In this document: piece by piece, positions 15,091 through 64,000 of the stretch
Position numbering within the stretch: position 1 is the first letter of the stretch
Layout of the letters: each line of letters starts with the position of its first letter
DNA from: Anaeromyxobacter sp. Fw109-5
GTDB taxonomy: Bacteria; Myxococcota; Myxococcia; Myxococcales; Anaeromyxobacteraceae
NCBI RefSeq assembly: GCF_000017505.1
Contig: NC_009675.1
Span: 4,592,501-4,656,500, forward strand
DNA length: 64,000 bases
Direction: 5' to 3'
Position numbers and translations under genes: made by a program
Notes under the pieces: model-generated
The model's input: the letters and a program-made list of their open reading frames with translations, nothing else
What the model was told of the DNA's origin: nothing
Database searches by the model: none

Positions 15091-15092
15091 GT

Positions 15093-16043
15093 CTACGCTC
15101 CCGCCGCGCCCGCCTCGGCGCAGGCCGCGCGGATGCGCCCGAGGATCTCGTTCTGGACCGCCTCGATGTCGGTCGCGCCCTTGGAGTCGGGGTCGTACCC
15201 GAAGATCGGGCAGCCCTCCGACGACGCCTGGGCGAACTTGGTGCACTGGCGGACCACGGAGTCGAGCAGGTAGTCCGCGTAGTGCTCGCGCAGCGCGCCG
15301 AGCGCCTCGCGGGCGATCTTGAAGGTCTGGTTGTAGGCGTTCACGACGATGAAGATGTTCTCGAGCTGGTGCGACAGGTCCTGCTCGAGCCCCTGGATCG
15401 TCTCGAAGAGGAGGCGCAGCCCGTCGTAGGAGAGGAAGTCGGCGAGCACCGGGATGACGAGATCCGAGGCCGCCATGAGGGCGTTCAGGTTGAGCAGCCC
15501 GAACGACGGCGGCGCGTCGAGCACCACGAAGTCGTACTTGCCCTGCACGCCCTGGAGCGCGTTGCGGAGCCGGAACTCCCGGCCGGCGAGCGGCATCAGC
15601 GCGAGGTCGATGGTGCTCATCGACAGGTTCGCCGGCACGAGCGAGAGGTTCGGCATGCCGGTCGGGACCGTGACCTCGTCGAGCGGGCGCCGGCGGATGA
15701 TCACGTCCTGGAGGGTCTGGGTGAAGCTGCCGCCCTCCTTGCCGAGGCACTTCGTGGCGTGACCCTGGCTGTCGAGATCGATCATGAGCACGCGGTAGCC
15801 ACGCTCCGCGAGCCGGTAGGCGTACGAGGACGAGAGGCTCGTCTTGCCGGTGCCGCCCTTGAAGTTGAGGAAGAGCTGGACGCGCGGCGCGAACGGCTCG
15901 GGTGGGCGGCGCAGCTTCGCGCGCAGCACGGGCAGGTCGTCGGGGACGAACCCGTCCCTCTTCCCGAGCGCGCCCTCGATCTGCTTCGACGTGACGCCGA
16001 AGATCTCGGCGAGGCGCTTCGCGGTGTAGCGGACGTTCTCCAT
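15093..16043 (-). CDS. ParA/MinD-family ATPase
   Basis: 316 residues. A short N-terminal DNA-binding-like region (RYTAKRLAEIFGVTSKQIEG, MerR/HTH-like) precedes the ATPase. The deviant Walker A KGGTGKTS lies at 62-69, the DLDSQG switch near 94, and VVLDAPPSFG near 172. Such ATPases position plasmids, chromosomes, chemosensory arrays or other cargo by dimerising on DNA. No parB-like gene or parS is next to it. It follows the HEAT-repeat gene by eight bases and precedes the coiled-coil gene by two, so an orphan ParA acting with these two proteins on cargo other than the origin is the likeliest reading. Confidence 0.88.
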   Translation of the reverse strand: MENVRYTAKRLAEIFGVTSKQIEGALGKRDGFVPDDLPVLRAKLRRPPEPFAPRVQLFLNFKGGTGKTSLSSSYAYRLAERGYRVLMIDLDSQGHATKCLGKEGGSFTQTLQDVIIRRRPLDEVTVPTGMPNLSLVPANLSMSTIDLALMPLAGREFRLRNALQGVQGKYDFVVLDAPPSFGLLNLNALMAASDLVIPVLADFLSYDGLRLLFETIQGLEQDLSHQLENIFIVVNAYNQTFKIAREALGALREHYADYLLDSVVRQCTKFAQASSEGCPIFGYDPDSKGATDIEAVQNEILGRIRAACAEAGAAGA

Positions 16044-47799: not shown

Positions 47800-47873
47800 G
47801 GGCCCTTAGCTCAGTTGGATAGAGCGTCGGACTACGAATCCGAAGGCCAGAGGTTCAAATCCTCTAGGGCCCG
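47800..47873 (+). tRNA. tRNA-Arg (anticodon ACG), island attachment site
   Basis: Acceptor GGGCCCT / AGGGCCC, anticodon loop CTACGAA with ACG (read as ICG after deamination), T arm AGAGGTTCAAATCCTCT. Unlike the two tRNA-Ser genes next to it, the gene is followed by CTA instead of an encoded CCA. With an integrase gene starting just downstream, this indicates that the 3' end of the gene is the attachment site and that the sequence after it comes from the island. Confidence 0.95.
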
Positions 47874-47993: not shown

Positions 47994-49091
47994 CTAGTCC
48001 GTCCGGGTGGAAAATTCGCCTCGAAAGGTGGGGGCGGCACCCTCCCGGCGCGCCGCGTCGATGCGCTCCACCGCGGCCTTGAGGTCCCCCTCGTCGATGA
48101 TGTTGTAGCGGTCGAAGACGCTCCGGGTCTTGTGGCCCGAGAGCTTCATCACGACCGATTCCGGCACGCCGCTCCGGCGCGCGTTCGTGACGAACGAACG
48201 GCGGAGGTCGTGGAACCAGATGCCCGCGTAGCCGGCGCGCTCGCAGGCGCGGCGGAGCATCTTGTTGTGCTCGCTCCAGGGCCGGCCGGTGTCCGGGTTC
48301 ACGAATACGTACGGCGAGTGGAGCTGGCGCGGGGTCGCGCGGAGGATCTCGAGCGCGCGGCTCGTGAGGTAGACGACGCGCGCCTCGTTCGTCTTCGTCT
48401 CCTTCGCCGAGAGGCGGATGCACCCGAGCCCGAGGTCCACCTGCTCCCAGCGCAGGAAGCGGAGCTCGGTCTTGCGGAGCCCGGTCTCGTAGTCGAACTC
48501 GATCACCGGCGCGAAGGTGGGCGGCGCCGCCTTCAGGATCCGCTCGAGCATGACCGGCTTCAGCACCATGTCGCGGGTGTTCGGCTCGTTGAGGAGCGGC
48601 ACCGCGGCGATGGGGTTCCGCACGAGCGTCCCGCACTCGATCGCGAAGTTGATGCAGCGCTTGAGCAGCGCGATCTCGCGGTCGATGGTGCCGGGCGCGG
48701 GAGGGCCACCGCGGCGGGTGGTCTCCTCGAAGCGCTTCTCCCGGTACTCCTCGACGTCCTTGCGCGTGAGCTTCGCGGCGCGCCGGCTGCCGAGGTGCTC
48801 GACGAGGTGGCGCGCCCGATCGACGTCGGACCGCCAGCTGTCGTTGTCGCGCCGGGTGATCGGCTCCCACGCCTTCCAGCAGTCCTCGACCGTCGTCTTC
48901 GCCTCGAGCTGCCGGTCGAACCAGCGGCCCTCGAACGCGTCGATCTCGAGCTTGGCGAGGAGCATCTTCGCGTGCTTCTGGCTCGGGATCTTCTTCACCC
49001 GGACCCGCTTCAGCTGCCCGCTGGGCAGCTTTATCCATGCATCGAGGCCGAACAGGGTCCGGCCGTCCTTCTCGTACTGGTAGACGCCCAT
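47994..49091 (-). CDS. tyrosine recombinase / integrase
   Basis: 365 residues. N-terminal AP2-like arm-binding region (MGVYQYEKDGRTLFGLDAWI), a core-binding SAM-like domain (~65-165), and a catalytic domain with Arg in YETGLRKTELRFLRW near 207, HDLRRSF near 298 (H-x-x-R), GHKTRSVFDRYN near 322 (His and the Tyr nucleophile): the complete RHRHY set. It integrates the island at the adjacent tRNA-Arg. ATG at 49091 after AAGGAGAAGCTC. Confidence 0.95.
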   Translation of the reverse strand: MGVYQYEKDGRTLFGLDAWIKLPSGQLKRVRVKKIPSQKHAKMLLAKLEIDAFEGRWFDRQLEAKTTVEDCWKAWEPITRRDNDSWRSDVDRARHLVEHLGSRRAAKLTRKDVEEYREKRFEETTRRGGPPAPGTIDREIALLKRCINFAIECGTLVRNPIAAVPLLNEPNTRDMVLKPVMLERILKAAPPTFAPVIEFDYETGLRKTELRFLRWEQVDLGLGCIRLSAKETKTNEARVVYLTSRALEILRATPRQLHSPYVFVNPDTGRPWSEHNKMLRRACERAGYAGIWFHDLRRSFVTNARRSGVPESVVMKLSGHKTRSVFDRYNIIDEGDLKAAVERIDAARREGAAPTFRGEFSTRTD

Positions 49092-49177: not shown

Positions 49178-49582
49178 CTACCGAAGCGCGAGGACCGCGT
49201 CGAGCTCCGCCCGGTGGAACCGCATCCGCCGCGGGCCGAAGCGGTGGACGGGGACCTGGCCGCGGCGGACCGCCTGGTACAGTGCGCGGACCGAGGGGAG
49301 ACGCAGGTACGCGGCCGCCTCCTGCGGCGTCAGGGTCTCGCCGGTGCCCTCGCCGCCGGCGGAGCGCCGCGCCGCCCTGCCCTCCCCGTGGAGCGCCGCG
49401 ACCTCCTGGCGGAGGGCGCGGAGCTCGATGCGCAGCAGCGCGCAGGGGTTCGCGACCTGGCCGCAGCTCGCGCACCTCGCCTCGGCCGAGGGCGGCTCCC
49501 GGTACTCGGCGTTGGCCTCGAACGAGCAGGGCACGCAGATCCACGCCCGAGGCGGCGCCGCCGCGAGGCTAGTCCCGGTCAC
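49178..49582 (-). CDS. zinc-ribbon plus excisionase-type HTH protein
   Basis: 134 residues from a GTG at 49582 that has GGAGG six bases upstream. The N-terminal half has two cysteine pairs (CVPC near 17, CASCGQ near 38), a likely zinc ribbon. After a helix (LRIELRALRQEVAALHGEG) the C-terminal half is an HTH_17/excisionase-like DNA-binding domain (LTPQEAAAYLRLPSVRALYQ ... RRGQVPVHRFGPRRMRFHRA). It sits directly upstream of the integrase gene in the same direction, as expected for a recombination directionality factor or a regulator of the integrase. The zinc ribbon is not usual for excisionases. Confidence 0.78.
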   Translation of the reverse strand: MTGTSLAAAPPRAWICVPCSFEANAEYREPPSAEARCASCGQVANPCALLRIELRALRQEVAALHGEGRAARRSAGGEGTGETLTPQEAAAYLRLPSVRALYQAVRRGQVPVHRFGPRRMRFHRAELDAVLALR

Positions 49583-49967
49583 CGGAGGCCTCCACCCCCG
49601 CGTCAACGCCGTGCACCGGCCTGGCCGTGCCGTCGCGCGGCGCCACAGCCACGCCGGCGTGGGTGGGCTTCCGCTCGGGCGCGGGCGTCGCGTCGGCGCG
49701 GGTGCTCGCCGTCTTGGCGGCGTGGAGCTTCGCCACGTCGGCCGCCTTGCTGGCGACGGCGGACACCGTCGCGTCGATCGCGCCGTCGCCGAGCGCCTGC
49801 GACAGGGCCGGCGCGTTGTCGATGAGAGCGGCCGCGACGTCGAGGACGGCGCAGCCGAGGCCGCCCTTGTTCACGCGGCAGGCCTTCGCCGCGCGCCGCA
49901 GGTGCTTCGCGCTCTTGTTGAAGATGACATCGGGGTCAGCGGGGGTCTTTCCGCGAGTCTCGTTCAC
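49569..49967 (-). CDS. small hypothetical island protein
   Basis: 132 residues from GTG at 49967, with AAGGAG eight bases upstream. The N-terminal part is basic with two Cys (KSAKHLRRAAKACRVNKGGL GCAV region); the middle is an Ala-rich helix (ALSQALGDGAIDATVSAVAS); the tail is Thr/Pro-rich. The 3' end overlaps the zinc-ribbon gene by 14 bases. No family is recognised. First gene of the integrase-side transcript. Confidence 0.65.
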   Translation of the reverse strand: MNETRGKTPADPDVIFNKSAKHLRRAAKACRVNKGGLGCAVLDVAAALIDNAPALSQALGDGAIDATVSAVASKAADVAKLHAAKTASTRADATPAPERKPTHAGVAVAPRDGTARPVHGVDAGVEASGDRD

Positions 49968-50639: not shown

Positions 50640-51611
50640 CTACCTCACGGTCGCGCTTCGGAAGATCTCCGTCCGGTGGAACTCGAGGTAACGCTCCTGA
50701 TCCCGCGAGAACTTGCCGATGATCGGGGGCCGGTCCGGGTCGACACCAAGCTTCACCAGGGTCCTCTCGTCCGCTACGGGAGAAACGAGCAGCTGCCCGT
50801 CAGCGAATGAGATGAACCCCCGATCGAACAGGAAGTCAGCGTGCGGGGCGAGCAGGAGGCCGTTGTGCGCGCTCAACCGCTCGTCGTTCGTGGCGTGCCG
50901 CCACGGCTTGATGTGGCTCGCGATCAGGTACGCCGGGTTGGACACCTTCGTGATTCGGCACTCCGGTTCGATGCGAGCGACATTCGCGCGGAAGAGCCCC
51001 TGGCCGATACGTGCCTTCACGAGCGCCTCGCGCTCGGTCGAGTCGAGACGTGCTCGCTGAAGCTCCTCGAGCTCATGCCGCTCCCATACCTCGCGCTCCG
51101 GCTCCTCGGCGGACGCGACGAGCGTTGCTCTCGCGTCGCGCGCCTGGAGCGGGTTCCCGGCGGCAACGACGAGCGACCAGACCAGGTTCCCGAGATCGGA
51201 CGGCAGCGCTGCGAGGTAGACGGATTGCAGCCCCTTCCCGTTCGCCGCGTTGAGGGGCGAGTACTTCTCAGGGAGCAGCGGGCGGATTCGCTCCCACGCG
51301 CTACGGGGCGCAACAGGTGCCGTCAGCCGGACGTACTCGACATCGACGCGATAGCCGATCTGGCTCCAGTTGCGGCCGACCGCCCCGAACTCGTCCGGTT
51401 TCGGCGCGTCGTACCCGAAAGAACGAATCGTGCCGTACGCTCGAATCGCTCCTTCCCAGTACGAGAACACCAGGTCGCCGGGAGCGACGACCTTCATGTT
51501 CTCGTAGAACTGGTTTCGGCTGAGATCTGCGCGGCGCTTCGGGGACCAGAGATACCCGCCGCCGATCTCGTGGCGGTACGTCTGCTTCTGGTTCACCCAC
51601 CAGTACTGCAT
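50640..51611 (-). CDS. EVE-HNH endonuclease (type IV-like)
   Basis: 323 residues. The N-terminal ~140 residues look like an EVE domain (YWWVNQKQTYRHEIGGGYLW ... APGDLVFSYWEGAIRAYGTI), a PUA-like pocket that reads modified bases. The C-terminal part is an HNH_2 nuclease (about 215-275: ECRITKVSNPAYLIASHIKP, then LSAHNGLLLAPHADFLFDRG). EVE fused to HNH is a known arrangement of modification-dependent restriction enzymes that cut phage DNA with altered bases. It stands 61 bases after the helicase gene on the same strand. The catalytic histidines of SHIKPW and the metal-binding LLLAPHADFLFD are intact. Confidence 0.88.
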   Translation of the reverse strand: MQYWWVNQKQTYRHEIGGGYLWSPKRRADLSRNQFYENMKVVAPGDLVFSYWEGAIRAYGTIRSFGYDAPKPDEFGAVGRNWSQIGYRVDVEYVRLTAPVAPRSAWERIRPLLPEKYSPLNAANGKGLQSVYLAALPSDLGNLVWSLVVAAGNPLQARDARATLVASAEEPEREVWERHELEELQRARLDSTEREALVKARIGQGLFRANVARIEPECRITKVSNPAYLIASHIKPWRHATNDERLSAHNGLLLAPHADFLFDRGFISFADGQLLVSPVADERTLVKLGVDPDRPPIIGKFSRDQERYLEFHRTEIFRSATVR

Positions 51612-51672: not shown

Positions 51673-54600
51673 TCAGGCTGAGGCCACAGCCGCGGCGATG
51701 ACCAGCGCCCAACGTGTATCGATCCACCGCGTCGCTTCCTTCGGCGTCCCCTCGAGATAGCGGGCCAGGTTCACGCGCGCCTCGTCCAGCACGCCGCCCT
51801 TCGCCTCGACGTCGTCCCTCGCGACGAGCACCCAGGCCAAGTCGACGAGCGACACCGTCCGCTCGCGGAACCCGTCAGGGCCGCCGTCGATGCGGACGCC
51901 GCCCCGCTCCGCAAGGCCGACAACCCGGCACCGCTTTCCGTCCCGCTCGATCCAGTTCCCGCCGAACCGCTCGACGGCCGCGGTCGCCAGTGCTCGGGCG
52001 CGCTCGAGCTGGGGCTCGGGCAGGCGTCGCGACGCGGTCCGCCCCACCCCGAGGTGCTTCCAGGTACCGTAATCGACCTCGGGGATCACCCACGCTCGCT
52101 CGTCGTCGTTCCACCGCCCGACGCCGCAGTACCTCCAGGTCGTCCCCTCGCCGCGGGCGAATACGAACGCGGTCTCGCCAGGCCGGCGCGCCGGCACCGG
52201 ACGCGTAACCCGGTCCGGCGCGGACAGAACACCCCGCCCGTCCACCATCACGAACAGGTGTCCGCCGACGCGCAGCCCGTCGCGCGGGTCGGCGTCGAGC
52301 CCGAAGGCCTTCCCGACCTCCCCGTCCTCGACGTGCGCGCCGACCTCCGGGGCGAGCGCCTCAGGTGACACGTGTTCCGCCAGGATCGCGACGGGGACGG
52401 TGCGCTCCTGCGCCGCGAACGGCGCGATCCCGGGATTGTCCGACGCGAGGAGCCAGCGTCCATCGCGCCGCACGATCCGCTTCACCTGGTAGGCGCCGTC
52501 GCCGCTCCCGTCGCTGACCTGGACGAGCGCCACCCGGCCCTCGACGGCGCCGAGCCCGGCGCCACGGGCGTACCGGAAGAGGAGCCAGTCGCCGTCGCGG
52601 ATGGGATCCCCGCCGCCCGCCATCGAGTTGCCCGCAGCACGGACCGCGAAGAGCTCGGCCCCGCGACTCGGGACCGGAAGCACGACCTCCTCCGCCTCGG
52701 GTGCGCCCGCCGTCGGGGCACCCGCGGCGCCGGCTGCCGCGCGAAGCGTTGGGAACGCCACCACGCGCCCGCGCGAAGGCAGATCGATCATCTGCCCGAG
52801 CGGCTCCACGTTCCACCCGTCGGGCGACCGGAAGAAGCGAATACGGAAGGCGGTCCCCGCCCTGCCGACCGCCGGCCCGAACCAAGCGCGCAGGATGTCG
52901 GGGAGCAGGTTCTTCGTCGAGCCGACCGGGTGCGCCACGTTGCAGGCGATCTTCACGAAGCGGAAGCGCCACCAAGCTCCGGTGGGCGAACCGGCGCCAG
53001 AGTGCGCGAGCCGGACGTCGGTGTCGCCGGTCGGCAGGTCGGGCCGGGACATCCGCGGCGGGAGCATCAGGATCGGATCGCGCTCGTTCGAGATGACCTT
53101 GCAGACGAAGGCATCGCCCTGGACCTCCGGCTCAAACCGACGGCGATACTGCGCGAGCCGATAGTCCACCAGCTCCCGCGTCATCTCGACGACCGTCTCC
53201 TCAAGCCCGGTCGGGATCGGCAGCTTCGGCAAGAACCGATCGCCTTCGACCGCGAACCACCGCTTCGGCTCAGCAGGCGTCCCGGCCCACGCCTTCACCG
53301 GGTTCTTCCGCCAGTACGCGAGCCACGCCCGCTCGGCGGGTACACGCGGGTCCGGCAGCTCGTTTACGCCGTTGAGGTCGCGGAACAGCTCGGGGGAGCG
53401 GACGAGGATCTGGTGGCTACGCCGCGCGAGCACGTCGAGATTGACGCCCGTTCCGAGCGCCTCGAGCTCGATGACTGCCTCGAGCAGCACCAGCTTGAAC
53501 GACTTCTCGAGGACGGTCGTCTCGAGCTCGCGGTACCAATCGCGCCCGGCTTCGAGAACGCGCTCCTCATCCGCGGTGAGGTGGCCTTCCGAGCGGACGA
53601 ACTCGAACCAGCTACCGTGCACCTGACGCAGCACGGAGGGCGAGTAGCCGGAGCGGTACAGCTCGCCAATCGTGGGGCGCTCGCCTCGCGCCACCTGAAG
53701 CTCCCGATACGCGCGCTCGACCGCGTTTGCGCCCGAAGGAAGAAGCCGTCGGAGCAGATCGATCGCATCGAGCTGAACATCAATGGAGCACCCGGGAGGC
53801 AGCTCGGCCTCCCCGCCCTCAAGGAATGCGCGGAGGTCCGGCCGCGCATCGCCAAGCGAGAGCAGCGTCCGCACGCGGTCCAGGAAGACGCGGTGGTTTC
53901 CGACGAAGTCTATGACCGTGAGCCGCTCCTTGCCCTCGGCGATGCGGAGCCCGCGCCCGAGCTGCTGCAGGAACACCACCGGCGACTCTGTCGGCCGGAG
54001 CATCACGACCCGATCGACGAGGGGAACGTCGACCCCCTCGTTGAACAGGTCGACCGCGCATACCGCGTCGATGCGACCCGCGGCGAGGTCGGCGAGTGCG
54101 CGGCTGCGGTCGTCCGAGCCGGGGTCGGAGTGCACCGCCCGCACGCGCACGCCGCGCCCCTCGAGCCACCTCTTCGCGAACTCGGCATGCGGGATCGAAC
54201 AGCAGAATACGAGCGTCCGCATCCCGCCGTGCTCACCGAGCGCGCTCCAGAGCCGCTCCATCCGCTCCTGCGTCTGAACGGCTTCCTCGAGCCGCTTCGG
54301 GTCGAACCGGCGATTCCGCCACGGAATGTTGTCGTGCGAGTAGTCGACCGTGTCCTTCAGGCCGAAGTAGGCGAACGGAACGAGCCGCTTCGCCTCGATG
54401 CCGACGCCGAGGTCGGCACGGAACGGCAGGTTGTCATCGAAGAGGCCGAGGACGTCTCCCTCATCGGCGCGATCCGGCGTGGCCGTGAGGCCGAGCAGGA
54501 ATCCCGGATCGATGCGCGAGAGGATGCGCCGGTAGCTCGGCGCCTCGGCGTGATGGACCTCATCGACGACCACGTAGTCGAACCGCTCCGCCGCGAGCCG

Positions 54601-55929
54601 CTCGAGGTTCTCGGGCCGGGAAAGCTTCTGGACCGACGCGACGACGATGTCCGCCTCCAGCTCGGACCGGTCCTCGGCGAACCAGCCCACCCGCAGGTCG
54701 GGCATGGCACCGCGGAGGACGCGCCGGAAAGTCGTCGCGGCCTGGACGAGCAGCTCGCGCCGGTGCGCGATGAAGAGGACGCGGATCGGGTGATCGAGCG
54801 TGCTGCGGAAGGCATCCGCATCGTATGCGGCGAGGAGTGTCTTGCCGAGGCCGGTCGCCATCACGACGAGGGCGCGCTTCTCGCCGTCCGCACGCGTCGC
54901 GGCGAGCGCGTCGAGCGCATCGCGCTGGATCTCGTGCGGATCCGGCGCCGCCGTGAGCGGCTCCGCCTCCGTCTCGCCGGGCGGCAGCGCGACTGGTGCG
55001 ACCCGCGCGCGGGCGGCATAGGCGGTGACCCACTCCAGCGTGAGCGGTGTCGCGCCCGCCCAGACGGCCTCGAACGCCTCCTTGACGCTCGCGTATGCGA
55101 TCGGATCACGCGAGCGGTCCGTCCGGAGGTTCCACTCAACTCCCGTCCAGAGCGCGGAGGCGGAGACGTTCGAGCTGCCGACGAACGCGACGCCCAGGCC
55201 CTCCCCCTCGAACCGCCATGACTTCGGATGAAACGAACGGCTACCCGCGAGCCGCGCCGTCTCGACGATCCGCGCCTCGAAGCGCGGGGGCGCGCCGGCG
55301 GGCGCGAGCGCGCCCTGCCAGTCAAGCATCCGCTTCAGCGCCTCGGCCTGCGTTATGTCGAGATAGTCGCCGGTGATGAGCCGGATGCGGGCTCCCCGAT
55401 CCGCAGCCGAGAAGACTGGGTCCTGGAGCAGCTCGAGCCCGCTGTCCTGGACGAAGGCCGCGACGATCGCGATCTCGCGGGCGCCCGCGAACAGCGGCCG
55501 GATGTGCGCAAGGAAAGGGTCCGCCGTCCCGCCTACGACCAGCGGCTCCGCGGCGAGGCGCCTGTAGTTCCCCTTCCACGGGATGACGTGCCGCACGCCA
55601 CCCGCCGGGTCGTCCATGTCGCCCTCGTAGCGGGGGATGACGTGGACGTGGAGGTGCATGACCGTCTGGCCGGCATGCACGCCGACGTTGAAACCGACGT
55701 TGTAGCCAGCGGGCTGGTGCTCCGCATCGAGCTGCAGTTTCACAACCTCGACGAGGTCGAGCATTGCGCGCTGCTCGTCACGCGTGGCGTCGAACCAATC
55801 ACGCACTTGGCGGCGCGCTATGATGAGCGTGTGGCCGTCGGTGACGGGAAACGTATCTCGGATCGCGAACGCCAGCTCGTTGGAGACGAGCCACTCGCGC
55901 TCGGGGATATCCAGGAAAATTGAGCGCAT
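51673..55929 (-). CDS. HIT-PLD-SF2 helicase-S24-like multidomain protein
   Basis: 1418 residues. Domain order: HIT-type hydrolase/transferase (1-125, HLHVH at 92-96); phospholipase-D-like nuclease (about 135-290, H234-x-K236 ... GSSN 251-254); SF2 helicase (about 330-690: Walker A ATGLGKT 358-364, DEVH 456-459, TATP 482-485, motif VI QQLGRGLR 655-662); a long middle region; and an S24/LexA-like part (about 1085-1175: GNSMAGG with S1102, YQVKR with K1150, forming a Ser-Lys dyad). The rest (1180-1418) has no recognised fold. PLD-helicases occur with DUF499 and DUF1156 proteins in defence islands; here the gene follows the DUF499 gene. The start is the ATG at 55929; upstream in-frame sequence lacks HIT homology. 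Confidence 0.85.
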   Translation of the reverse strand: MRSIFLDIPEREWLVSNELAFAIRDTFPVTDGHTLIIARRQVRDWFDATRDEQRAMLDLVEVVKLQLDAEHQPAGYNVGFNVGVHAGQTVMHLHVHVIPRYEGDMDDPAGGVRHVIPWKGNYRRLAAEPLVVGGTADPFLAHIRPLFAGAREIAIVAAFVQDSGLELLQDPVFSAADRGARIRLITGDYLDITQAEALKRMLDWQGALAPAGAPPRFEARIVETARLAGSRSFHPKSWRFEGEGLGVAFVGSSNVSASALWTGVEWNLRTDRSRDPIAYASVKEAFEAVWAGATPLTLEWVTAYAARARVAPVALPPGETEAEPLTAAPDPHEIQRDALDALAATRADGEKRALVVMATGLGKTLLAAYDADAFRSTLDHPIRVLFIAHRRELLVQAATTFRRVLRGAMPDLRVGWFAEDRSELEADIVVASVQKLSRPENLERLAAERFDYVVVDEVHHAEAPSYRRILSRIDPGFLLGLTATPDRADEGDVLGLFDDNLPFRADLGVGIEAKRLVPFAYFGLKDTVDYSHDNIPWRNRRFDPKRLEEAVQTQERMERLWSALGEHGGMRTLVFCCSIPHAEFAKRWLEGRGVRVRAVHSDPGSDDRSRALADLAAGRIDAVCAVDLFNEGVDVPLVDRVVMLRPTESPVVFLQQLGRGLRIAEGKERLTVIDFVGNHRVFLDRVRTLLSLGDARPDLRAFLEGGEAELPPGCSIDVQLDAIDLLRRLLPSGANAVERAYRELQVARGERPTIGELYRSGYSPSVLRQVHGSWFEFVRSEGHLTADEERVLEAGRDWYRELETTVLEKSFKLVLLEAVIELEALGTGVNLDVLARRSHQILVRSPELFRDLNGVNELPDPRVPAERAWLAYWRKNPVKAWAGTPAEPKRWFAVEGDRFLPKLPIPTGLEETVVEMTRELVDYRLAQYRRRFEPEVQGDAFVCKVISNERDPILMLPPRMSRPDLPTGDTDVRLAHSGAGSPTGAWWRFRFVKIACNVAHPVGSTKNLLPDILRAWFGPAVGRAGTAFRIRFFRSPDGWNVEPLGQMIDLPSRGRVVAFPTLRAAAGAAGAPTAGAPEAEEVVLPVPSRGAELFAVRAAGNSMAGGGDPIRDGDWLLFRYARGAGLGAVEGRVALVQVSDGSGDGAYQVKRIVRRDGRWLLASDNPGIAPFAAQERTVPVAILAEHVSPEALAPEVGAHVEDGEVGKAFGLDADPRDGLRVGGHLFVMVDGRGVLSAPDRVTRPVPARRPGETAFVFARGEGTTWRYCGVGRWNDDERAWVIPEVDYGTWKHLGVGRTASRRLPEPQLERARALATAAVERFGGNWIERDGKRCRVVGLAERGGVRIDGGPDGFRERTVSLVDLAWVLVARDDVEAKGGVLDEARVNLARYLEGTPKEATRWIDTRWALVIAAAVASA

Positions 55930-55990: not shown

Positions 55991-58789
55991 TCACGCACTC
56001 TTTGTGGTGATGTCCTCCGAAAGCCCCAGCTCGCGAAGTGCCACCTTCGTCTCCTCGATCTTCGCCGACGTCGTTCCGCCCGGCGGAGCGACGTCCACCG
56101 CGACGGTCAGCTTGAGGCCGCCGCCCGTCGCGAACCGCGACAGCACCTTGGTGTAGAAGTTCATCCACTTCTGGGGAGAGACATCGCCGGTCCACTGGAA
56201 CCCGGCGATCGGAGGCGTGGGCGCCGGGCCCCCGCCTCCGGAGCCACCCGTACCCGGCGCGGACCCGCCGCCGCCCGGACCAGGACCGCCGCCTGGCACC
56301 CCGCCGCCCGCGCCCGGCTGCGCGCCTCCCCCACCGCCACCACCTCCGGGGATGGGCGGCTGGGGCGGGGGCTTTCGGGCGACGTATTCCTCTGCACGCT
56401 CCTTCGCGATGAGGAAGACGTCTTCTGCGATCTCGACGTCCGCCGCCGCGAGCGAGCGCTTGTAGACGAACGGATCGTACCCTCCAGCCTTCTTGCCGAC
56501 GTACGCGACGATTCCTGCGTCGAGGCCCTTCGAGATCGTGTCCTTGACCGCGTCGGCCCTGAGGAGGCGGGGAAACTTGGGCGATGCGTAGAACGCGTCG
56601 CGCACCGATTTCGTGCTCCACTCCGGAAGCGCCGGTGGCCAGTAACGCGTCAGGAAGTTCGGGCTGACGCCCTCGACGACGATGTCCTCCTGCTTCAGAC
56701 GGGACAAGATCAGCTCGACGAGCGAGTTCGCAGCGCTCGAGTGCACCAGGCCGAGGTCGATCTTCCGGAGCGAGTTGTCCTCGGCGAGGAGAAAGACGTT
56801 CTTGTACGCCCTCCACACCGATTCCCTGAGGTCCCGCTCGGCCCGCTTGGCGTTCTCGGCGAGCTGACGCTGCTTCGCCTCGTCGAGCTTGAGCTCCTCC
56901 GCGTCGGCCTCGATGTCCCTCCACGCGAGGAGCTTGCGCGCCTCCTCCATGAGCGGCGCGGAGTCCTCCGGCGCGACCCAGATGAGCGCGCTCTTGAAGG
57001 TCCTGGACGACGAACCGCTCTCGGTCGTGATCGACGTCATCAAGGTCTTCGTCGCGGCGTCGCCCGCGGGGTTGTCCGGCGCCAGCACCAGCATCGTCAG
57101 CACCGGGCGATCCGGTACCTCGCCGCTCTTCTTCGGGAAGAAGAGCCGCTCGATGCCGCTTCCGGCCGCGAAGACCTTCTGGATCTCCTTCCGGACCACC
57201 TCGTCGATTGCGGCGCCCGTGACGCTTGCCCGCCGATCGGCGAGGAGCTTGTTCAGGTTGGGTTGGAAGCTGAACCGGTAGCGGTTCTTCTCGGCTGCCA
57301 GGAAGTAGCAGGCGTCGGTAAGCGCCTCCAGGCACTGCTCTACGTTCCCGATGTCGAGCCCTGGCTCCGCGACGGCGAGGCGAACCTCCGGCAACGTCGC
57401 GTCCCCGCGCTGCTGCCCCCCGTTCGACTCGAAGAGGATGGTCGTGGCGACCTTCCGATGGAGACGCGCCTTCTTGATCTCGGCCGTTGCCTCGGCGTCG
57501 AGCCGGAGCGCGTGCGCGTGATCCGTCCCCGCGATGTCGGTCGTCACGGCGGGCTCGAGCCGCGCTTCACCCAGCTGCTCGAACACCGCCGCTCGGAACA
57601 GCGGGTCCTCCAGGGGCGCCGTACCGAGCGAGACGAGAGGATCCTTGTGCGCGCCCTTGTATCCCTCGCTGTACGCCTTCGACACCCACAGCGCGAGGAG
57701 CCTCAGGACGCCGCGCGTCTGCTGGAACCGCGGGAGGCCCTGCCATTTCCGCTCGAAAACGGACAACAGCGACGGATGGAAGGGGTAGGACGCCTTCAGC
57801 GCCTCGCGCGCGTTCTCGACGGGGAACCAGCTCGGGATCTGCTGCTTATTCGCGAGCAGCCACTGCTCGTACTCATCGACCGTGGCGATCGCGTCCTTCG
57901 GCAGCCCACTCCACTCGAAGAGCCGCCGGCGGATGATCTCGGACGTTTCCGCCTCCGCCGACATGATCACAGCCTTGCCGACCCGGTCGAGGAGCTTCTT
58001 GAAGCGTTCGAAGTCGGACTGGTCCTCCGCCGTCATCTCGAGCTCCGAGGCGGGAATCGAGACGGCGAGGACGATGTTGTCGCGCCCGCGCGCGACCTCC
58101 GAGAGATTGTGCAGGAACGTGTAGAGCTGACCGGCGAGCCCGCTCTTGCGGCTCCGGCTGACGTAGTTCATCACCTCGTCGAACAGGATGAGCGCCGGCT
58201 TGCCGCTCGGCAGTATGCGCTCGATCACGTCGCCGCCTGGCGCGGTGAGCGCCTTCTCGTGCTCCTCGACGAGCTTGAAACCCTCCGCCCCGCCGAGCTG
58301 GAACGCGATCTCGCCCCAGGGCGTCTTTCGGACCGGTGTGCCGCCGGTACCGCCCCGACCCGTGATCGAGTCGAACTCGGTCCCGACGAAGATCGCGGTC
58401 GCCGCGCGAGGCACCGTCGTGAGTCCCGCGTTGTCCAGAATTCCGCTGACGCCCTTCCACGACTTCGCGGCGTCGCCGTTCTGCGCCAAGTGGTAGAGCA
58501 GCGTGAGCGAGTGCGTCTTGCCGCCGCCGAACTGCGTCGAGAGGTTGAAGATGGCAGACGTCTCGACCTTCACGCCCGACAGGCGCCGGACGACCTGCGC
58601 CGTGAGCTCGCGCAGGTTCTTCGTCAGGAACGTCCGCGCGAAGAACTGGGCGGGGTCCTGGTACACGGCAGGCGCGCGCCCATCGCGTACGTGGTCGAGG
58701 TGAACGGCGAACTCGGACGCATCGAGGGGCTTCCCTTCTCGAAGGTCCTCGCGCGGCGTGACGATCTTGTACCAGGGCTTCAGGGCCAT
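55991..58789 (-). CDS. DUF499-type P-loop ATPase
   Basis: 932 residues. Walker A FGGGKTHS (87-94), Walker B ALILFDEVMNYV (199-210), then the long helical body of DUF499 AAA proteins (YPFHPSLLSVFERKWQGLPR near 345). Around 805-857 comes a Gly/Pro linker (PPIPGGGGGGGGAQPGAGGG...) leading to an ~70-residue C-terminal domain (FQWTGDVSPQKWMNFYTKVL). It is probably the ATP-driven sensor or loader of the system. It lies between the small protein gene and the helicase gene with 13- and 61-base gaps, all on one strand. Confidence 0.9.
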   Translation of the reverse strand: MALKPWYKIVTPREDLREGKPLDASEFAVHLDHVRDGRAPAVYQDPAQFFARTFLTKNLRELTAQVVRRLSGVKVETSAIFNLSTQFGGGKTHSLTLLYHLAQNGDAAKSWKGVSGILDNAGLTTVPRAATAIFVGTEFDSITGRGGTGGTPVRKTPWGEIAFQLGGAEGFKLVEEHEKALTAPGGDVIERILPSGKPALILFDEVMNYVSRSRKSGLAGQLYTFLHNLSEVARGRDNIVLAVSIPASELEMTAEDQSDFERFKKLLDRVGKAVIMSAEAETSEIIRRRLFEWSGLPKDAIATVDEYEQWLLANKQQIPSWFPVENAREALKASYPFHPSLLSVFERKWQGLPRFQQTRGVLRLLALWVSKAYSEGYKGAHKDPLVSLGTAPLEDPLFRAAVFEQLGEARLEPAVTTDIAGTDHAHALRLDAEATAEIKKARLHRKVATTILFESNGGQQRGDATLPEVRLAVAEPGLDIGNVEQCLEALTDACYFLAAEKNRYRFSFQPNLNKLLADRRASVTGAAIDEVVRKEIQKVFAAGSGIERLFFPKKSGEVPDRPVLTMLVLAPDNPAGDAATKTLMTSITTESGSSSRTFKSALIWVAPEDSAPLMEEARKLLAWRDIEADAEELKLDEAKQRQLAENAKRAERDLRESVWRAYKNVFLLAEDNSLRKIDLGLVHSSAANSLVELILSRLKQEDIVVEGVSPNFLTRYWPPALPEWSTKSVRDAFYASPKFPRLLRADAVKDTISKGLDAGIVAYVGKKAGGYDPFVYKRSLAAADVEIAEDVFLIAKERAEEYVARKPPPQPPIPGGGGGGGGAQPGAGGGVPGGGPGPGGGGSAPGTGGSGGGGPAPTPPIAGFQWTGDVSPQKWMNFYTKVLSRFATGGGLKLTVAVDVAPPGGTTSAKIEETKVALRELGLSEDITTKSA

Positions 58790-58802: not shown

Positions 58803-59396
58803 TCACCGTCGCGCGAACCGCTCGAAGCGTCCGGTGTTCGAGTTGAGCTTCCACATCTGAAAGAAGCCGTAAGGGAACGTGCTGGCCTCGTTTCTCGAGC
58901 CTACGACGACCAGCGTGTCACCGACGAGTGCGACGCGGTCGGCGATTTCCATCGCCTCCACGACGCGTGCGCCGAGCGCGGAGACAAACCCGGGGCCGTC
59001 CGATGCGTCGGGCCGGTAGCAGAACACGACGCGGAGCCCGCATCGGACGCAGAGCACTTTCCAGAGCGAGTACGCGACGAGGTCCGCGTCGGCCGAGTTC
59101 TCGAGCTCGCACGCGGCCACAGGGAACTGCCACCCGGTTCCGGCCTTGCGAAACGCTGTCACGTCGAGGGACAGGTACTCGTTTCGCCGAACCGGCAACA
59201 CGGAGCATCTGTGGCCCCTGCCCGCTGCCGCCAAGCCGAGCCGAGTGAACGAAGCCACGACGACGCCGGTGAGAGCTGACGTCCACGCGGCGAGGTCCGA
59301 GCGCAACGAGGCGTCGCGGAGCGCGTCTGCGGCAGAGCGTTCCTCCTCAATGGCGCCGTAGAACTCGGACGCCCATGTGGTGGCGAAGGGGGTCAT
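58803..59396 (-). CDS. small protein of the methylase/ATPase operon (nuclease-fold-like)
   Basis: 197 residues. Its position between the DUF1156 methylase and DUF499 genes is where DUF3780 proteins occur in related systems, but identity to that family cannot be checked here. The centre, YLSLDVTAFRKAG ... FPVAACELENSADADLVAYS followed by LWKVLCVRCGLRVVF, resembles a PD-(D/E)xK core (Asp, then Glu-x-Glu after a strand). The Lys of E-x-K is replaced by Asn (ELEN), which some inactive or divergent members show. ATG at 59396 overlaps the methylase stop (ATGA). Confidence 0.7.
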   Translation of the reverse strand: MTPFATTWASEFYGAIEEERSAADALRDASLRSDLAAWTSALTGVVVASFTRLGLAAAGRGHRCSVLPVRRNEYLSLDVTAFRKAGTGWQFPVAACELENSADADLVAYSLWKVLCVRCGLRVVFCYRPDASDGPGFVSALGARVVEAMEIADRVALVGDTLVVVGSRNEASTFPYGFFQMWKLNSNTGRFERFARR

Positions 59397-62296
59397 CCGA
59401 AGCCGAGCCCCTTCTTGCGCCCGAGCACTCCGTCCACCCACCGCTTCTCCTCCGATCCGGTTGGGTAGAGGGCGGATAGGGACTGCGCGAGGGTCCAGAA
59501 CTGGCCCTGGTTTCCGACGCCCTCCGCGACGAGGAAGCGTTTCAGCCCTTCGCCGCGACCCGATGCGAACAGGAGCATGGCCTGGTGTACTCGGTCCAAG
59601 GTGGTCGCGGCGGCCTTCGGCGCGCCGCGCTCGCCCCAGCCCTGCGCTTTCGCGGCTTCCTGCAGCTCGGCGAACAACCCCATCTGCTTCTTCGAGGCCC
59701 GCTTCGCCGGCACGACTCCTTCGTCGCCTGCGAACAGGTGCTTGGTTCGCTCTGCGACCGACAGCAACCGCGCCTGGTTCGCTTTGACCACCACGACATG
59801 GGGGAGCTGCTCGAGACGGGCGCCCAGCCCCTGGGCGATCTTTCGCGCGGCGTCGTACTCGAGGCTGAAACCATCCGCTCCGTCTGCGTCCAATTCGGCG
59901 TCGTCGCTCGCCGGCGCATCCCCGCCGCCGTCGTCCGCGGCCGAGGCTCGAGCTCGGTCTGATGCAAGCGTCCACAGCCACATGGCCGTGATCCTCGCGT
60001 CCTCCTCGAGGCGAGCCGACTCGGCTTCGTCGAAGATCATCGCCAGCGCCTCGCGCGAGACAGCCGCCCATACGTGCTCGAGGTACTCCTCGAGCGGCAC
60101 GACCTCGCCCGAAACTTTCTCGACGCGCGCATACCGAGAGAAGAGTTCGAGGGCCGGGCCGAGGCACGCGAAGATCGCGTCGGCGCCCACGACGCCCTCG
60201 CGAGCGAGCCGCGGCATCCACTCCGCGATTCGCTTGGGAAGCGCCGCGAGCACGTCCCGCCAATCACCCACCGTATCCGTGATGAGCCGCCCATCTGGAT
60301 ACTCGCGCGGCCGGCACACGAGATGAACCGACGAGGCGAGCACGGCCGAGTTGCGCGCGCGCAGCCGGCCGGCGTTCTCCGTGTCGATCGGCCACGACGC
60401 CGTGACGACCCATCCCGCGTCGAGCATCGCAGCTAGCAGGTCCTCCCAGCCGCTCGTCGACTTGTGCGCGAAGATGACGACGCCGATGCCATCCGGCCGG
60501 GTGACACGCCTCGCCTCGGTGAGGGCGGCGGTCATGACGCGGCGGTAGTAGGCCCGGTCCTTCCCCGTGGCCGGGTTGACGATGCACTCGTCGTCCCGAG
60601 GCACCAGAGGCGTCTTGAAGAGCTCGGGATGATCGGGACCGAGCACGCGCCGGAGCCAGACGTAGAAGAAGTCGGAGAGGTCCGCGTACGGTATCGCGTC
60701 GTAGTAAGGCGGATCCGTCACGAGGAGATGCGCGCAGTCGGACGGCAACGGGTGATGGCTCGCAGACGCCATGCCCACGTCCGCCGCCCCGGTGCTCACG
60801 TGCGCGTTCCTCAACCCACGGAGCACGTGCTCGACGGCGCCCGCCCACGACCCGGAGGACGATGCGAGCGGATTCGCCTCGCCGAAGTCCCAGATGATCG
60901 GGAGGGCCTGGCGGGTGAAGAGGTGCGGCAACGCCGAGCCGCTTGGATTCCAGGAGCAACCCGTGTTCTGGTAATCGCATAGACGGTCGACGGCGAGCGC
61001 GAGACAGGCTCGTACCGCCACACCGAGCCCGTGCGCCGCCCGATCCTCGGCCATCACGCCTTGAACCAGGCGCACCAGCGTCGTGATCGTGACGAGCTGC
61101 CGCGGCGTATAGATGTCGCGCCACCGGAGCATGCCGTACCGCTGCACGCGGAATCCGAGTGTTCCCACCGGAGGCAGCGGCTCGTCGGGGAGCTCTGGCA
61201 GGCCCAAGTCGCCTCTCCGCCGGAGGAGCGCCACCTTCTTCTTCGCAGCGGCAATCGCATTCAGGTCGGCCTTCGCCGGACGCCTGAACGTTCGCTCGCC
61301 CGACTCTTCTCCTACCGCGACCGCGACGAGAAGCGCGTCGTCTGCACCGCCGCCCCGCTCCGAGAGCTGAGCGCGAATGCGCTCGACCGGCGTCGTGTAC
61401 CCGCACTTCAGGCAAGTTGCTGCCCCCCGCCGAACGGTGGGGTCCGGAAACGAGCCGAGGGGGCCTTCCGCGATGCTGAAGCGGGGCGTGGGCCCCTCCC
61501 ATCCGTCCAGCCGGAGCCCGACAGACCGGTCACCGCGCCGCGTCAGGTGGAACTTGCTCGTGAGAGGGACGTCCGCGCCGCACTTCGGGCCCTCGCACCG
61601 GATGCGCCTGAACGAGATGGACGCGATCGGCTGCTGCCCCTGCACAACGGGATAGAACGCGTTCAGCTCTCCCCGCGCCTCCTCGCCGACTCGCGCGCCC
61701 CAGCGCTCGACCTCCTCGAACAGCTTTTCGCCGAACCGCTGGACGTACTCGAGCGTGACCTTGCTGATGAGAGTCGCGACCGGATTCAAGTCGGACGCAT
61801 ACGCCGACATTCCGAGCCGCAGCCCCTCGAGCGGAATGGATCCGCCACCACAGAACGGGTCCGCGAGGAACGCGCCTCCGTTTTTCCCGAAGAGCGCCTG
61901 GTGCGCGGACGCGACAAGCTCGCGAGCCGCGTCTCGATACGTTGGATCGGTCGCCCTGTCCCAAGACGCGAAGTCCGAGACGAGCCGGAGCAGCCCGCGT
62001 CGCAGTTCCTCTGCTTCGAGCTGCGCGCTGTCTGGTCCCCGGTAGATACGGCTGAGTACCACACGCGCCTTGTCCCTGAACTCCTGCGGGCAAGCGGAGT
62101 CCGCGGGGTCGAGCAAGGCGGCAGCAAGGGCCGCGGCACGACACGAGGGCAGAGGCTTGCGCGCCCACCAGATGTGGATCGCCGTGATGTGGCCGTGGTG
62201 TGCCGAGCGGCCATCGCGCGCGGACTCCGAGATCTGGCCGATCGGAAGATCGACCTCGATGAGGCGCCGCGGAAATGTCCCCGCGGATGCGCTCAT
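59393..62296 (-). CDS. DUF1156-type DNA methyltransferase (downstream copy)
   Basis: 967 residues. It opens with the DUF1156 region (FPRRLIEVDLPIGQISESAR ... HIWWARKPLP). SAM motif I is DPFCGGGSIPLEGLRLG (146-162), and the catalytic DPPYYDAIPYADLSDFFYVW is near 528, so the target base is an exocyclic amino group (m6A or m4C). Two Cys pairs (CEGPKCG, CLKCG, about 240-315) may bind zinc. A Lys/Ala-rich C-terminal part ends in EEKRWVDGVLGRKKGLGFG. The start overlaps the upstream paralogue's stop (ATGA). It either protects host DNA or uses methylation as part of phage sensing. Confidence 0.9.
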   Translation of the reverse strand: MSASAGTFPRRLIEVDLPIGQISESARDGRSAHHGHITAIHIWWARKPLPSCRAAALAAALLDPADSACPQEFRDKARVVLSRIYRGPDSAQLEAEELRRGLLRLVSDFASWDRATDPTYRDAARELVASAHQALFGKNGGAFLADPFCGGGSIPLEGLRLGMSAYASDLNPVATLISKVTLEYVQRFGEKLFEEVERWGARVGEEARGELNAFYPVVQGQQPIASISFRRIRCEGPKCGADVPLTSKFHLTRRGDRSVGLRLDGWEGPTPRFSIAEGPLGSFPDPTVRRGAATCLKCGYTTPVERIRAQLSERGGGADDALLVAVAVGEESGERTFRRPAKADLNAIAAAKKKVALLRRRGDLGLPELPDEPLPPVGTLGFRVQRYGMLRWRDIYTPRQLVTITTLVRLVQGVMAEDRAAHGLGVAVRACLALAVDRLCDYQNTGCSWNPSGSALPHLFTRQALPIIWDFGEANPLASSSGSWAGAVEHVLRGLRNAHVSTGAADVGMASASHHPLPSDCAHLLVTDPPYYDAIPYADLSDFFYVWLRRVLGPDHPELFKTPLVPRDDECIVNPATGKDRAYYRRVMTAALTEARRVTRPDGIGVVIFAHKSTSGWEDLLAAMLDAGWVVTASWPIDTENAGRLRARNSAVLASSVHLVCRPREYPDGRLITDTVGDWRDVLAALPKRIAEWMPRLAREGVVGADAIFACLGPALELFSRYARVEKVSGEVVPLEEYLEHVWAAVSREALAMIFDEAESARLEEDARITAMWLWTLASDRARASAADDGGGDAPASDDAELDADGADGFSLEYDAARKIAQGLGARLEQLPHVVVVKANQARLLSVAERTKHLFAGDEGVVPAKRASKKQMGLFAELQEAAKAQGWGERGAPKAAATTLDRVHQAMLLFASGRGEGLKRFLVAEGVGNQGQFWTLAQSLSALYPTGSEEKRWVDGVLGRKKGLGFG

Positions 62297-64000
62297 CCGA
62301 AGCCAAGTCCCTTCTTTCGAGCAAGGACGCCGTCGACCCACCGCTTTTCGTCGGAACCGCTCGGATAAAGAGCCGACAGCGACTGCGCTAGCTTCCAGAA
62401 TTGCGCCTGCATGCCGATGCGATCTTCCACAAGGAAGCGCTTCAGCGCATCACTGCGCCCGCCCCCAAAAAGAAGCATCGCTTGATGCACGCGGTCGAGA
62501 GTCGTCGTTCCAGCCTTTGGCGCGCCGCCCTCTCCCCACGCCTCCTCGCCGGCAGGTCGCTCGAGGTCCGTGAATAGCACCGCCTGTTTCTTGGCGGCCG
62601 CCTTCTTGCCGGCAGGCACGCCTTCGTGCCTGCCGAACAAGTATTTCGCGCGTTCGGCTACTGCAATAAGGCGAGCCTTGTCCTTCTTGATTTCGACTAC
62701 TTGCTGAAGTTCATCGAATCGGACACCGAGTCCCTGCGCGATCTTCCTCGCGGTGTCGAACGGAAGAACCGCACCCCCAGATCCGCCCCTGTCCCCCTGA
62801 TCGTCATCCTCATCCTCGTCGGGCACCTGATCCTGCTCATCGCCCGAGTCACCGCTCGGCTCGGGTCCAGCAAGAGTCCACAGCCACATCGCAGTCAGGC
62901 GCGCATCTGCCTCGAGGCCGGCAGTGTCCGCGTCTCGAAAGATCGACGCGAGCGCCTCGCGAGCTACTGCTGCCCAGACGTGCTCCAGGTACTCGCGAAG
63001 CGGCACCGCCTCGCCGTTCACCTTCTCGACACGCGAGTAGCGAGAGAAGATCTCCAATGCTGGCCCGAGACACGCGAAAATCGCATCTGCACCCACAACT
63101 CCCTCGTGAGCTAGGCGCGGAAGCCATTGGTGGATACGCTCAGGGAGCTCAGCTAGGACGACCTTCCATTCACCGACGTGTGCTTGATCAACTCCCCTGG
63201 GCCTGCACACGATGTGAACAGAAGACGCCAGCGATGCGGTCCCCATCGCATTGACCCGGCTTCCCATCTCCGTATCGATCGGCCAAGAGGCCGTCGCGAC
63301 CCAACCTGCGCGGATCAGCGAGCCGAGAATTGCCTCCCATCCCTCCGTGCTCTTGTGCGCGAACACCACGACCCCGATGCCATCGGGGGCCGTAACGCGC
63401 CTTGCCTCCGCGAGGCACCGATACATCTGCTCCTCATAAAAGGCCTGATCCTTCTGACGTCCGGTCGGCCCGTACTTGCGAGTCGGGTTCCAAATCGCTT
63501 CCTCGTCCTTCGGCGTTGTCCGGGAACTGAAGAGGTCAGGGGCGTCGTCGAAGAGGACACGCCGCAGCCAGACATAGAAGAAGTCAGAAAGATCGGCGTA
63601 CGGGACAGCGTCGTAGTAAGGAGGGTCCGTAACAAGCGCAGCCGCGGCGTCATCCGGCAGCGGGTGTTCAGCCGCCGAAGCCGATTGCACTGTCGCTTTT
63701 CCAGGCGCCTCGAACGAGCACTGCCGAAGTGCGTATGCGGTTCGCTCGAACATGCTTCGCCAGGACCCACTCGCATCGGACAGCGAAACCGTTTCCGCAA
63801 AATCCCACACGATCGGGATGGCTTGCCGCGCAAACAGGTTAACGGGGCATTCCGCATCCGGCTTCCATCGAGTGCACGAATTCCCTAGATCTGTCGCCTT
63901 CGAGAGAGACAACGCCAGACAAAGGCGGACCGCCTTCCTCATTTCAGGCGAGCCGATGTCCGCACCCGCTTCGCGGCACAAACGCACGAACGTCGTATGA
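62293..64000 (-). CDS. DUF1156-type DNA methyltransferase (upstream copy), cut by window edge
   Basis: At least 569 residues; the gene continues beyond 64000, so its N-terminal DUF1156 region and SAM motif I are not visible. Visible: IPIVWDFAETVSLSDASGSW, the catalytic VTDPPYYDAVPYADLSDFFY, and the same end as its neighbour (SDEKRWVDGVLARKKGLGFG). It is a paralogue of the downstream gene, with the insert RTTPKDEEAIWNPTRKYG after the catalytic motif, absent from the other copy, which may alter specificity. The overlap with the next start (ATGA) makes it the first visible gene of the operon. Confidence 0.9.
   Translation of the reverse strand, partial: HTTFVRLCREAGADIGSPEMRKAVRLCLALSLSKATDLGNSCTRWKPDAECPVNLFARQAIPIVWDFAETVSLSDASGSWRSMFERTAYALRQCSFEAPGKATVQSASAAEHPLPDDAAAALVTDPPYYDAVPYADLSDFFYVWLRRVLFDDAPDLFSSRTTPKDEEAIWNPTRKYGPTGRQKDQAFYEEQMYRCLAEARRVTAPDGIGVVVFAHKSTEGWEAILGSLIRAGWVATASWPIDTEMGSRVNAMGTASLASSVHIVCRPRGVDQAHVGEWKVVLAELPERIHQWLPRLAHEGVVGADAIFACLGPALEIFSRYSRVEKVNGEAVPLREYLEHVWAAVAREALASIFRDADTAGLEADARLTAMWLWTLAGPEPSGDSGDEQDQVPDEDEDDDQGDRGGSGGAVLPFDTARKIAQGLGVRFDELQQVVEIKKDKARLIAVAERAKYLFGRHEGVPAGKKAAAKKQAVLFTDLERPAGEEAWGEGGAPKAGTTTLDRVHQAMLLFGGGRSDALKRFLVEDRIGMQAQFWKLAQSLSALYPSGSDEKRWVDGVLARKKGLGFG

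What the first reader, a model, noticed from the sequence alone, without database searches (positions are those of the whole stretch)
50640..51611. Modification-dependent EVE-HNH nuclease next to a methylase system
An enzyme that reads modified bases lies beside an operon making its own modified bases with two methylases. The EVE pocket must ignore the host's m6A/m4C or else be held off, so together they could discriminate phage DNA both by missing host marks and by foreign marks.
Basis: inference. Interest (0 to 1): 0.6.

Follow-up and report, generated by a model that had tools for sequence, protein, structure and literature searches.

The report
Stand-alone modified-cytosine-cutting defence nuclease
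A soil-type bacterium carries, on a mobile block of anti-phage genes, an ordinary enzyme that cuts DNA with chemically modified cytosine; it happens to lie beside a separate DNA-methylating defence operon, and nothing found here shows that the two work together.

Summary
The ORF at 50640-51611 (-) is a full-length homologue of the solved EVE-HNH enzyme VcaM4I (6yex, E 6e-75), with the base-flipping-pocket and catalytic residues conserved. The neighbouring operon is an Hma (DUF499-centred, BREX-related) system with two tandem DUF1156 methylases. The pocket reads flipped C5-modified cytosine, and the genome has no PF00145 cytosine methylase, so the nuclease need not be 'held off'; it simply should not see the predicted adenine marks. 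The claimed partnership is not supported for this gene. None of 23 relative loci carries Hma; of 195 phylum genomes 5 have full-length EVE-HNH, 19 have HmaC and only this one has both (chance expectation 0.49). The gene has its own promoter-like TANNNT element, seen at the same place in 5 of 5 closest loci whose upstream DNA is otherwise unrelated. It is cargo of a 46.7-kb element in tRNA-Arg, beside other defence systems. The dual-discrimination idea is already printed for archaeal stand-alone EVE proteins beside the same operon type. Verdict: a new member of a known kind, low interest. Side lead: a NudG-like hydrolase abuts EVE-HNH in 5 of 23 relative loci.

The parts
50640..51611 (-). EVE-HNH modification-dependent nuclease, VcaM4I homologue (323 aa)
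51162..51611 (-). EVE (PUA-superfamily) sensor half, residues 1 to about 150; pocket Q10 T11 E15 W22 S23 P24 W82 Q129 Y132
   Evidence: alignment to VcaM4I; residue roles from PMC7897488 section 19
50652..51044 (-). HNH nuclease half, residues about 190-320; H233 N250 D259 D263
   Evidence: PF13391
51621..51626 (-). TAGACT, promoter -10-like TANNNT element 9 nt before the ATG (leaderless arrangement inferred)
   Evidence: present 9-12 nt before the start in 5 of 5 closest loci, upstream DNA 27-42% identical; the sigma-70 scan found nothing
51673..55929 (-). HIT - PLD - ResIII helicase - S24-like fusion; stands alone elsewhere; not part of Hma in relatives
55991..58789 (-). HmaC (DUF499 ATPase)
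   Evidence: PDLC00662 E 1.2e-127
58803..59396 (-). 197-aa protein of unknown family, conserved (71-75%) beside the closest HmaC relatives
   Evidence: no Pfam/PADLOC/NCBIfam match; L109, L117
59393..62296 (-). HmaB1, DUF1156 methylase with TDPPYYD (start inferred from the overlap)
62293..64000 (-). HmaB2, DUF1156 methylase, runs beyond the window (L002:4794-7742); HmaA follows at L002:7735-11208
47994..49091 (-). tyrosine integrase of the element
   Evidence: PF00589 E 2.9e-21
49178..49606 (-). HTH_17 (excisionase-like) protein
47832..47859 (+). attL core, 28 bases inside tRNA-Arg; identical copy (attR) at G000:C1:4687023-4687050, 46.7 kb to the right, outside the window

Best explanation
The gene encodes a stand-alone type IV (modification-dependent) restriction enzyme of the VcaM4I kind. 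Its EVE domain flips out a C5-modified cytosine (5-hydroxymethyl or 5-methyl) from incoming DNA, which releases the HNH nuclease to cut. It needs no partner and is not triggered by the host's own marks: the host has no PF00145 cytosine methylase, and the neighbouring Hma operon is predicted to methylate adenine, which the cytosine-shaped pocket does not fit. It is separately transcribed cargo of a tRNA-Arg-integrated defence element; any cooperation with Hma is additive (one attacks unmarked DNA, the other DNA with foreign cytosine marks), not mechanistic. Shown here: homology, residue conservation, genomic context, the promoter-like motif, element ends. Inferred: substrate, adenine specificity of the methylases, separate transcription, activity in this host.
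For: Full-length homology to 6yex and fold match. All nine pocket/wedge positions checked (Q10, T11, E15, W22, S23, P24, W82, Q128, Y130) are identical here, as are the HNH positions H224, N241, D250, D254; F132 and H251 differ (roles). No PF00145 match in the own genome, while 10 of 14 control genomes ring. HmaB proteins carry DPPY and match PADLOC 'DNA-adenine methylase' models; PMC12839542 section 29 calls this family N6-MTases. No Hma gene in 23 of 23 relative loci; no EVE-HNH in 18 of 18 HmaC stretches of other genomes. Co-occurrence 1 of 195 genomes, expected 0.49, P about 0.40. TANNNT 9-12 nt before the start in 5 of 5 closest loci. Plasmid copies, one on an 8.5-kb mobilizable plasmid.
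Against: The nuclease is on the same strand, 61 bases downstream of the helicase gene, so read-through transcription is possible, and no terminator-like site was found between them. No sigma-70-type promoter was found either, and the hexamer pattern was chosen after looking. Payne et al. describe HmaB as an m5C methyltransferase (PMC8565338); were that right, the nuclease would attack host DNA. Absence of PF00145 does not exclude every cytosine-C5 methylase. Stand-alone EVE genes do recur beside this operon type in archaea (PMC7641849), and modification-sensing HNH fusions (SAD/SRA-linked) are listed among auxiliary effectors of BREX and BREX-related systems (PMC12839542). In two relative loci a methylase does lie near the nuclease: a DNA cytosine methyltransferase 3.1 kb away in L154 and an HsdM-like ORF about 1 kb away in L159.
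Confidence: 0.85

Rival explanations
1. The nuclease is a recruited auxiliary effector of the Hma operon: Hma marks and scans DNA, and the EVE-HNH finishes off phages that escape by carrying modified cytosine, transcribed as the last gene of the operon.
For: Same strand, 61-base gap. Stand-alone EVE genes recur beside COG1743-DUF499-helicase operons in archaea (PMC7641849); HNH nucleases, including SAD/SRA-linked ones, recur beside BREX and BREX-related systems (PMC12839542).
Against: The intervening HIT-helicase is itself not linked to Hma in relatives. The two closest Hma relatives (HmaC 85-88% identical, L109 and L117) have the small protein but neither HIT-helicase nor EVE-HNH in the stretches read. 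No PF01878 match lies near HmaC in the 19 Hma-bearing genomes (that model misses this protein's own EVE domain). Own promoter-like element.
Confidence: 0.1
2. The protein is an EVE-HNH whose pocket has shifted to another mark (for example m4C or a phage hypermodification), so that the neighbouring methylases matter for self-protection.
For: Divergence at F132 (A134 here) near the pocket, though 8 of the 9 other relatives aligned share the A; PF01878 does not recognise the domain.
Against: All residues contacting the cytosine edge are unchanged; [quoted passage not shown]
Confidence: 0.04
3. The gene is a non-functional relic carried along by the element.
For: Loci L023 and L025 among relatives look broken or frame-split, so loss happens.
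Against: The ORF here is intact with all catalytic residues.
Confidence: 0.01

Closest known systems
VcaM4I (EVE-HNH, PDB 6yex/6yjb/6ykf/6ymg; PMC7897488)
   Same: Length, domain order, all checked pocket and active-site residues except F132 and H251.
   Different: Under 40% identical over the fold-search alignment; F132 to A, H251 to F; substrate untested.
Hma system (HmaA helicase, HmaB methylase, HmaC ATPase; PMC8565338), renamed Type-1 BREX-related system in PMC12839542
   Same: The neighbouring operon matches all three PADLOC Hma components.
   Different: Two tandem HmaB genes and an extra 197-aa protein; the EVE-HNH and HIT-helicase are not part of it in its closest relatives.
COG1743-DUF499-SWI2/SNF2-nuclease-EVE loci of archaea (PMC7641849)
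   Same: An EVE protein beside the same operon type, and the same proposed division of labour.
   Different: There the EVE is a stand-alone protein in a recurrent partnership; here it is an EVE-HNH fusion with no recurrence found.
TspA15I and other EVE-HNH enzymes (named in PMC7897488)
   Same: EVE-HNH enzymes; 5hmC preference reported for TspA15I (passage).
   Different: No sequence comparison with TspA15I made here.

Membership tests
VcaM4I-type EVE-HNH modification-dependent endonuclease | Full-length sequence homology with EVE then HNH | tested here: met
   residues 1-318, E 6.2e-75; HNH_2; fold match
VcaM4I-type EVE-HNH modification-dependent endonuclease | Flipped-base pocket residues P24, W82, Y130 plus Q10, T11, E15, W22, Q128 | tested here: met
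   all identical
VcaM4I-type EVE-HNH modification-dependent endonuclease | Active site H224, N241, D250, D254 | tested here: met
   H233, N250, D259, D263 here
VcaM4I-type EVE-HNH modification-dependent endonuclease | Pfam EVE model PF01878 matches | tested here: not met
   no match at E 0.1. Not treated as disqualifying, because PMC7641849 section 9 says many defence EVE domains are found only by sensitive methods; whether PF01878 detects VcaM4I itself was not tested.
VcaM4I-type EVE-HNH modification-dependent endonuclease | Cleaves 5hmC/5mC DNA in preference to unmodified DNA | not testable with these tools
   needs purified protein
Hma / Type-1 BREX-related operon (the neighbour) | HmaA, HmaB and HmaC in one operon | tested here: met
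   PDLC00659 E 1.3e-191, PDLC00660/00661 E 6e-101 (HmaB1) and 3e-128 (HmaB2), PDLC00662 E 1.2e-127
EVE-HNH as a component of Hma | Recurrent adjacency in related genomes | tested here: not met
   0 of 23 nuclease loci; 0 of 18 HmaC stretches of other genomes
Stand-alone EVE + COG1743-DUF499 partnership (Bell 2020) | Canonical EVE gene beside DUF499 operon | tested here: not met
   no PF01878 match near HmaC in 19 Hma-bearing genomes

The most novel reading that the evidence does not exclude
The EVE-HNH has been newly recruited, in this one lineage, as a downstream effector of an Hma (BREX-related) operon, giving a two-mark immunity in which absence of adenine marks and presence of cytosine marks are both read as foreign within one transcription unit.
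Probability: 0.08. Interest if true: 0.45.

Novelty: new member of a known kind. Interest (0 to 1): 0.2.

Why it matters
It adds a well-conserved myxobacterial-type member to the EVE-HNH enzymes and shows how a modified-cytosine nuclease can live beside a methylase operon without conflict: the two are predicted to use different bases. It also cautions against reading function into adjacency inside a mobile defence element, where separately mobile genes pile up. The NudG-like hydrolase found touching EVE-HNH genes elsewhere hints at a different self-protection route (keeping modified dCTP out of host DNA) that could be tested.

Tried and rejected
Rejected: (1) that the EVE pocket must be 'held off' from host marks. 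The pocket is cytosine-specific by homology and no PF00145 methylase was found. (2) That HmaB makes m5C, as written in PMC8565338: both copies carry DPPY and neither rang on the m5C pattern of the scan (the meaning of these motifs is recalled), and PMC12839542 calls them N6-MTases. (3) That the HIT-PLD-helicase ties the nuclease to Hma: it occurs without Hma in the 20 fetched stretches L065-L084 (20 chosen from the 59 of 195 genomes matching at 1e-80; one, L083, has only a weak HmaA-like hit, 85 bits).

Led nowhere: the fold of the 197-aa protein (mean pLDDT 47), so no claim is made on it; the sigma-70 and terminator scan; phage records, where only the HNH half matches, in 2 records; paper searches for a TIR/QueC/OGG system. 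The methylase motif scans are insensitive: one search missed the annotated cytosine methyltransferase of L154, and the stricter pattern missed the L159 ORF that one search found. So they are not used as evidence that methylases are absent.

Rows set aside: partial HNH-only hits (11 of the 16 genomes have only residues from about 168 onwards matched; G081 also has one such second hit) are counted as other HNH proteins, not EVE-HNH. L028 is the same contig as L020 and is counted once. L026 and L031 (partial) and plasmid hit H8 were not examined for neighbours. The 4 further genomes are in the 23 loci. A test of Hma co-occurrence over the 369 genomes was not made.

Full report
What is there. The ORF at 50640-51611 (-) is intact and 323 aa long. 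It matches the solved EVE-HNH endonuclease VcaM4I over its whole length (6yex, residues 1-318 against 1-307, E 6.2e-75). Pfam sees only HNH_2 and not EVE, but an AlphaFold model built on four sequences finds 6yex first (E 5.6e-15), then PH1033, YTH and MJECL36 structures at E 0.02-0.04. The sensor half of the model is usable (block pLDDT 57-81 from about residue 20 to 156); the HNH half is poor.

Residues. VcaM4I flips the modified cytosine into a pocket of P24, W82 and Y130; Q10 and T11 contact O2 and N3, W22 and E15 take hydrogen bonds from N4, and Q128 fills the gap in the helix (PMC7897488, sections 19 and 21 and passages read). All of these are identical in the window protein, as are the HNH residues H224, N241, D250 and D254. 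F132 and H251 differ. The prediction is therefore a reader of C5-modified cytosine. Adenine marks should not fit, and N4-methylation would disturb a hydrogen bond (inference).

The neighbour. Upstream on the same strand lie a HIT-PLD-helicase-S24 gene, HmaC, a 197-aa protein, two tandem HmaB methylases and, beyond the window end, HmaA. This is an Hma operon (PMC8565338, passages read), renamed a Type-1 BREX-related system in PMC12839542 (passages and section 29 read). Both HmaB proteins carry TDPPYYD. Payne et al. write 'm5c methyltransferase' for HmaB, whereas the PADLOC models are named DNA-adenine methylase and PMC12839542 calls the family N6-MTases. The sequence favours adenine. The own genome has no PF00145 match (the same search rings in 10 of 14 control genomes). 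So no conflict with self marks is expected and no 'holding off' is needed.

Are they partners? Tests for linkage were negative. (a) In 195 genomes of the phylum, full-length EVE-HNH occurs in 5 (counting only matches that start at residue 1), HmaC in 19, both in 1 (this genome); 0.49 is expected by chance, P about 0.40. (b) Of 23 loci holding EVE-HNH relatives, with flanks of 0.8-12 kb, 0 contain a HmaA, HmaB or HmaC homologue. (c) Of 18 stretches around HmaC from other genomes, 0 contain EVE-HNH, and no PF01878 match lies near HmaC in the 19 genomes (that model does not see this protein's own EVE domain, so the test covers canonical EVE only). (d) The closest Hma relatives (HmaC 85-88% identical) keep the 197-aa protein but show neither HIT-helicase nor EVE-HNH in the stretches read (L109, L117). 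(e) The gene is found on 11 plasmid records, one of them an 8.5-kb mobilizable plasmid. (f) A TANNNT hexamer sits 9-12 nt before the start codon in 5 of 5 closest loci (this one included), and is the only one in each 160-nt upstream stretch, although those stretches are only 27-42% identical over 60 nt; shuffles give 1-3% per locus. The pattern was chosen after looking, and two further loci have it 34-35 nt upstream.

Against this: the nuclease is 61 bases downstream of the helicase gene with no terminator-like site between; stand-alone EVE genes recur beside COG1743-DUF499-helicase operons in archaea (PMC7641849 section 9); modification-sensing HNH fusions are listed as auxiliary effectors of BREX-type systems; and two relative loci have a methylase nearby (L154, cytosine methyltransferase; L159, HsdM-like). 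PMC7641849 section 19 already proposes that the methylase makes a mark the EVE domain does not recognise and that the system handles both unmodified and modified DNA.

The setting. A 28-base piece of tRNA-Arg (47832-47859) recurs exactly at G000:C1:4687023-4687050, 46.7 kb away, with an integrase and HTH_17 gene beside the tRNA. Another genome of the genus has an 85% identical integrase and a HIT-helicase at the same tRNA (L083) and shares the right-end junction sequence (91.8% over 49 bases). The element carries Hma, ZacABC, two HIT-helicases, several TIR genes and a QueC/OGG/TIR-TGT group. It is a defence element in which the EVE-HNH is one cargo item.

Conclusion. Observation confirmed; partnership not supported; a new member of a known kind. 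The most useful by-product is the NudG-like hydrolase that touches EVE-HNH genes in 5 of 23 relative loci (3 lineages), since E. coli NudG is listed with high activity on 5-methyl-dCTP (PMC5158307 passage): a possible pool-cleaning route to self-protection. PMC7641849 mentions MutT homologues beside SauUSI homologues, and a search for EVE + HNH + Nudix + type IV restriction listed one paper, on polyvalent proteins, not opened.

Noticed in passing
L024:2153-2536; L155:9570-9980; L163:9331-9717; L164:9330-9716; L165:9331-9717: A NUDIX hydrolase directly neighbours the EVE-HNH gene in 5 of 23 relative loci (Bacteroidota, Alphaproteobacteria, Bacillota); the three tested (L155, L163, L024) score higher on the NCBIfam NudG-type model (pyrimidine dNTP diphosphatase) than on MutT models, below its cut-off. 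Possible removal of modified dCTP as self-protection.
   Followed up: partly
G000:C1, L032:4854-8114 (-), outside the window: A ThsB-like TIR gene, QueC, Ogg-HhH and a TIR-TGT fusion in a row: the QueC/TGT/OGG set that I recall from type IV CBASS. No cyclase was called in that row; none was searched for specifically.
   Followed up: partly
51673-55929 and L032:116-4253: HIT-PLD-helicase-S24 fusion, two copies (67% identical) in one element, the second with a stop codon in the matched stretch; 59 of 195 phylum genomes match at 1e-80, many only over the PLD-helicase core. No Pfam/PADLOC/NCBIfam model listed covers the whole architecture.
   Followed up: partly
58803-59396: 197-aa protein between HmaB1 and HmaC with no family match, 71-75% conserved in two other Hma loci (L109, L117); the ELENS stretch might be nuclease-like, untested.
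   Followed up: partly
L154:10034-11420 and 14070-15875: Rhizobium phaseoli plasmid: EVE-HNH followed 4 bases later by a Vsr endonuclease, with a DNA cytosine methyltransferase 3.1 kb away: a place where a self-conflict could be real.
   Followed up: no
47832-47859: The tRNA-Arg looks like an integration hot spot in the genus: partial tRNA repeats downstream also in G031, G036 and G033.
   Followed up: partly
57539-57626: ARAGORN calls a tRNA-Arg(ccg) inside the HmaC coding sequence; probably a false hit.
   Followed up: no
59393-62296 (HmaB1) and 62293 to window end (HmaB2): HmaB is called an m5C methyltransferase in the text of PMC8565338 but DNA-adenine methylase in the PADLOC models; the DPPY motif fits the latter.
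   Followed up: yes
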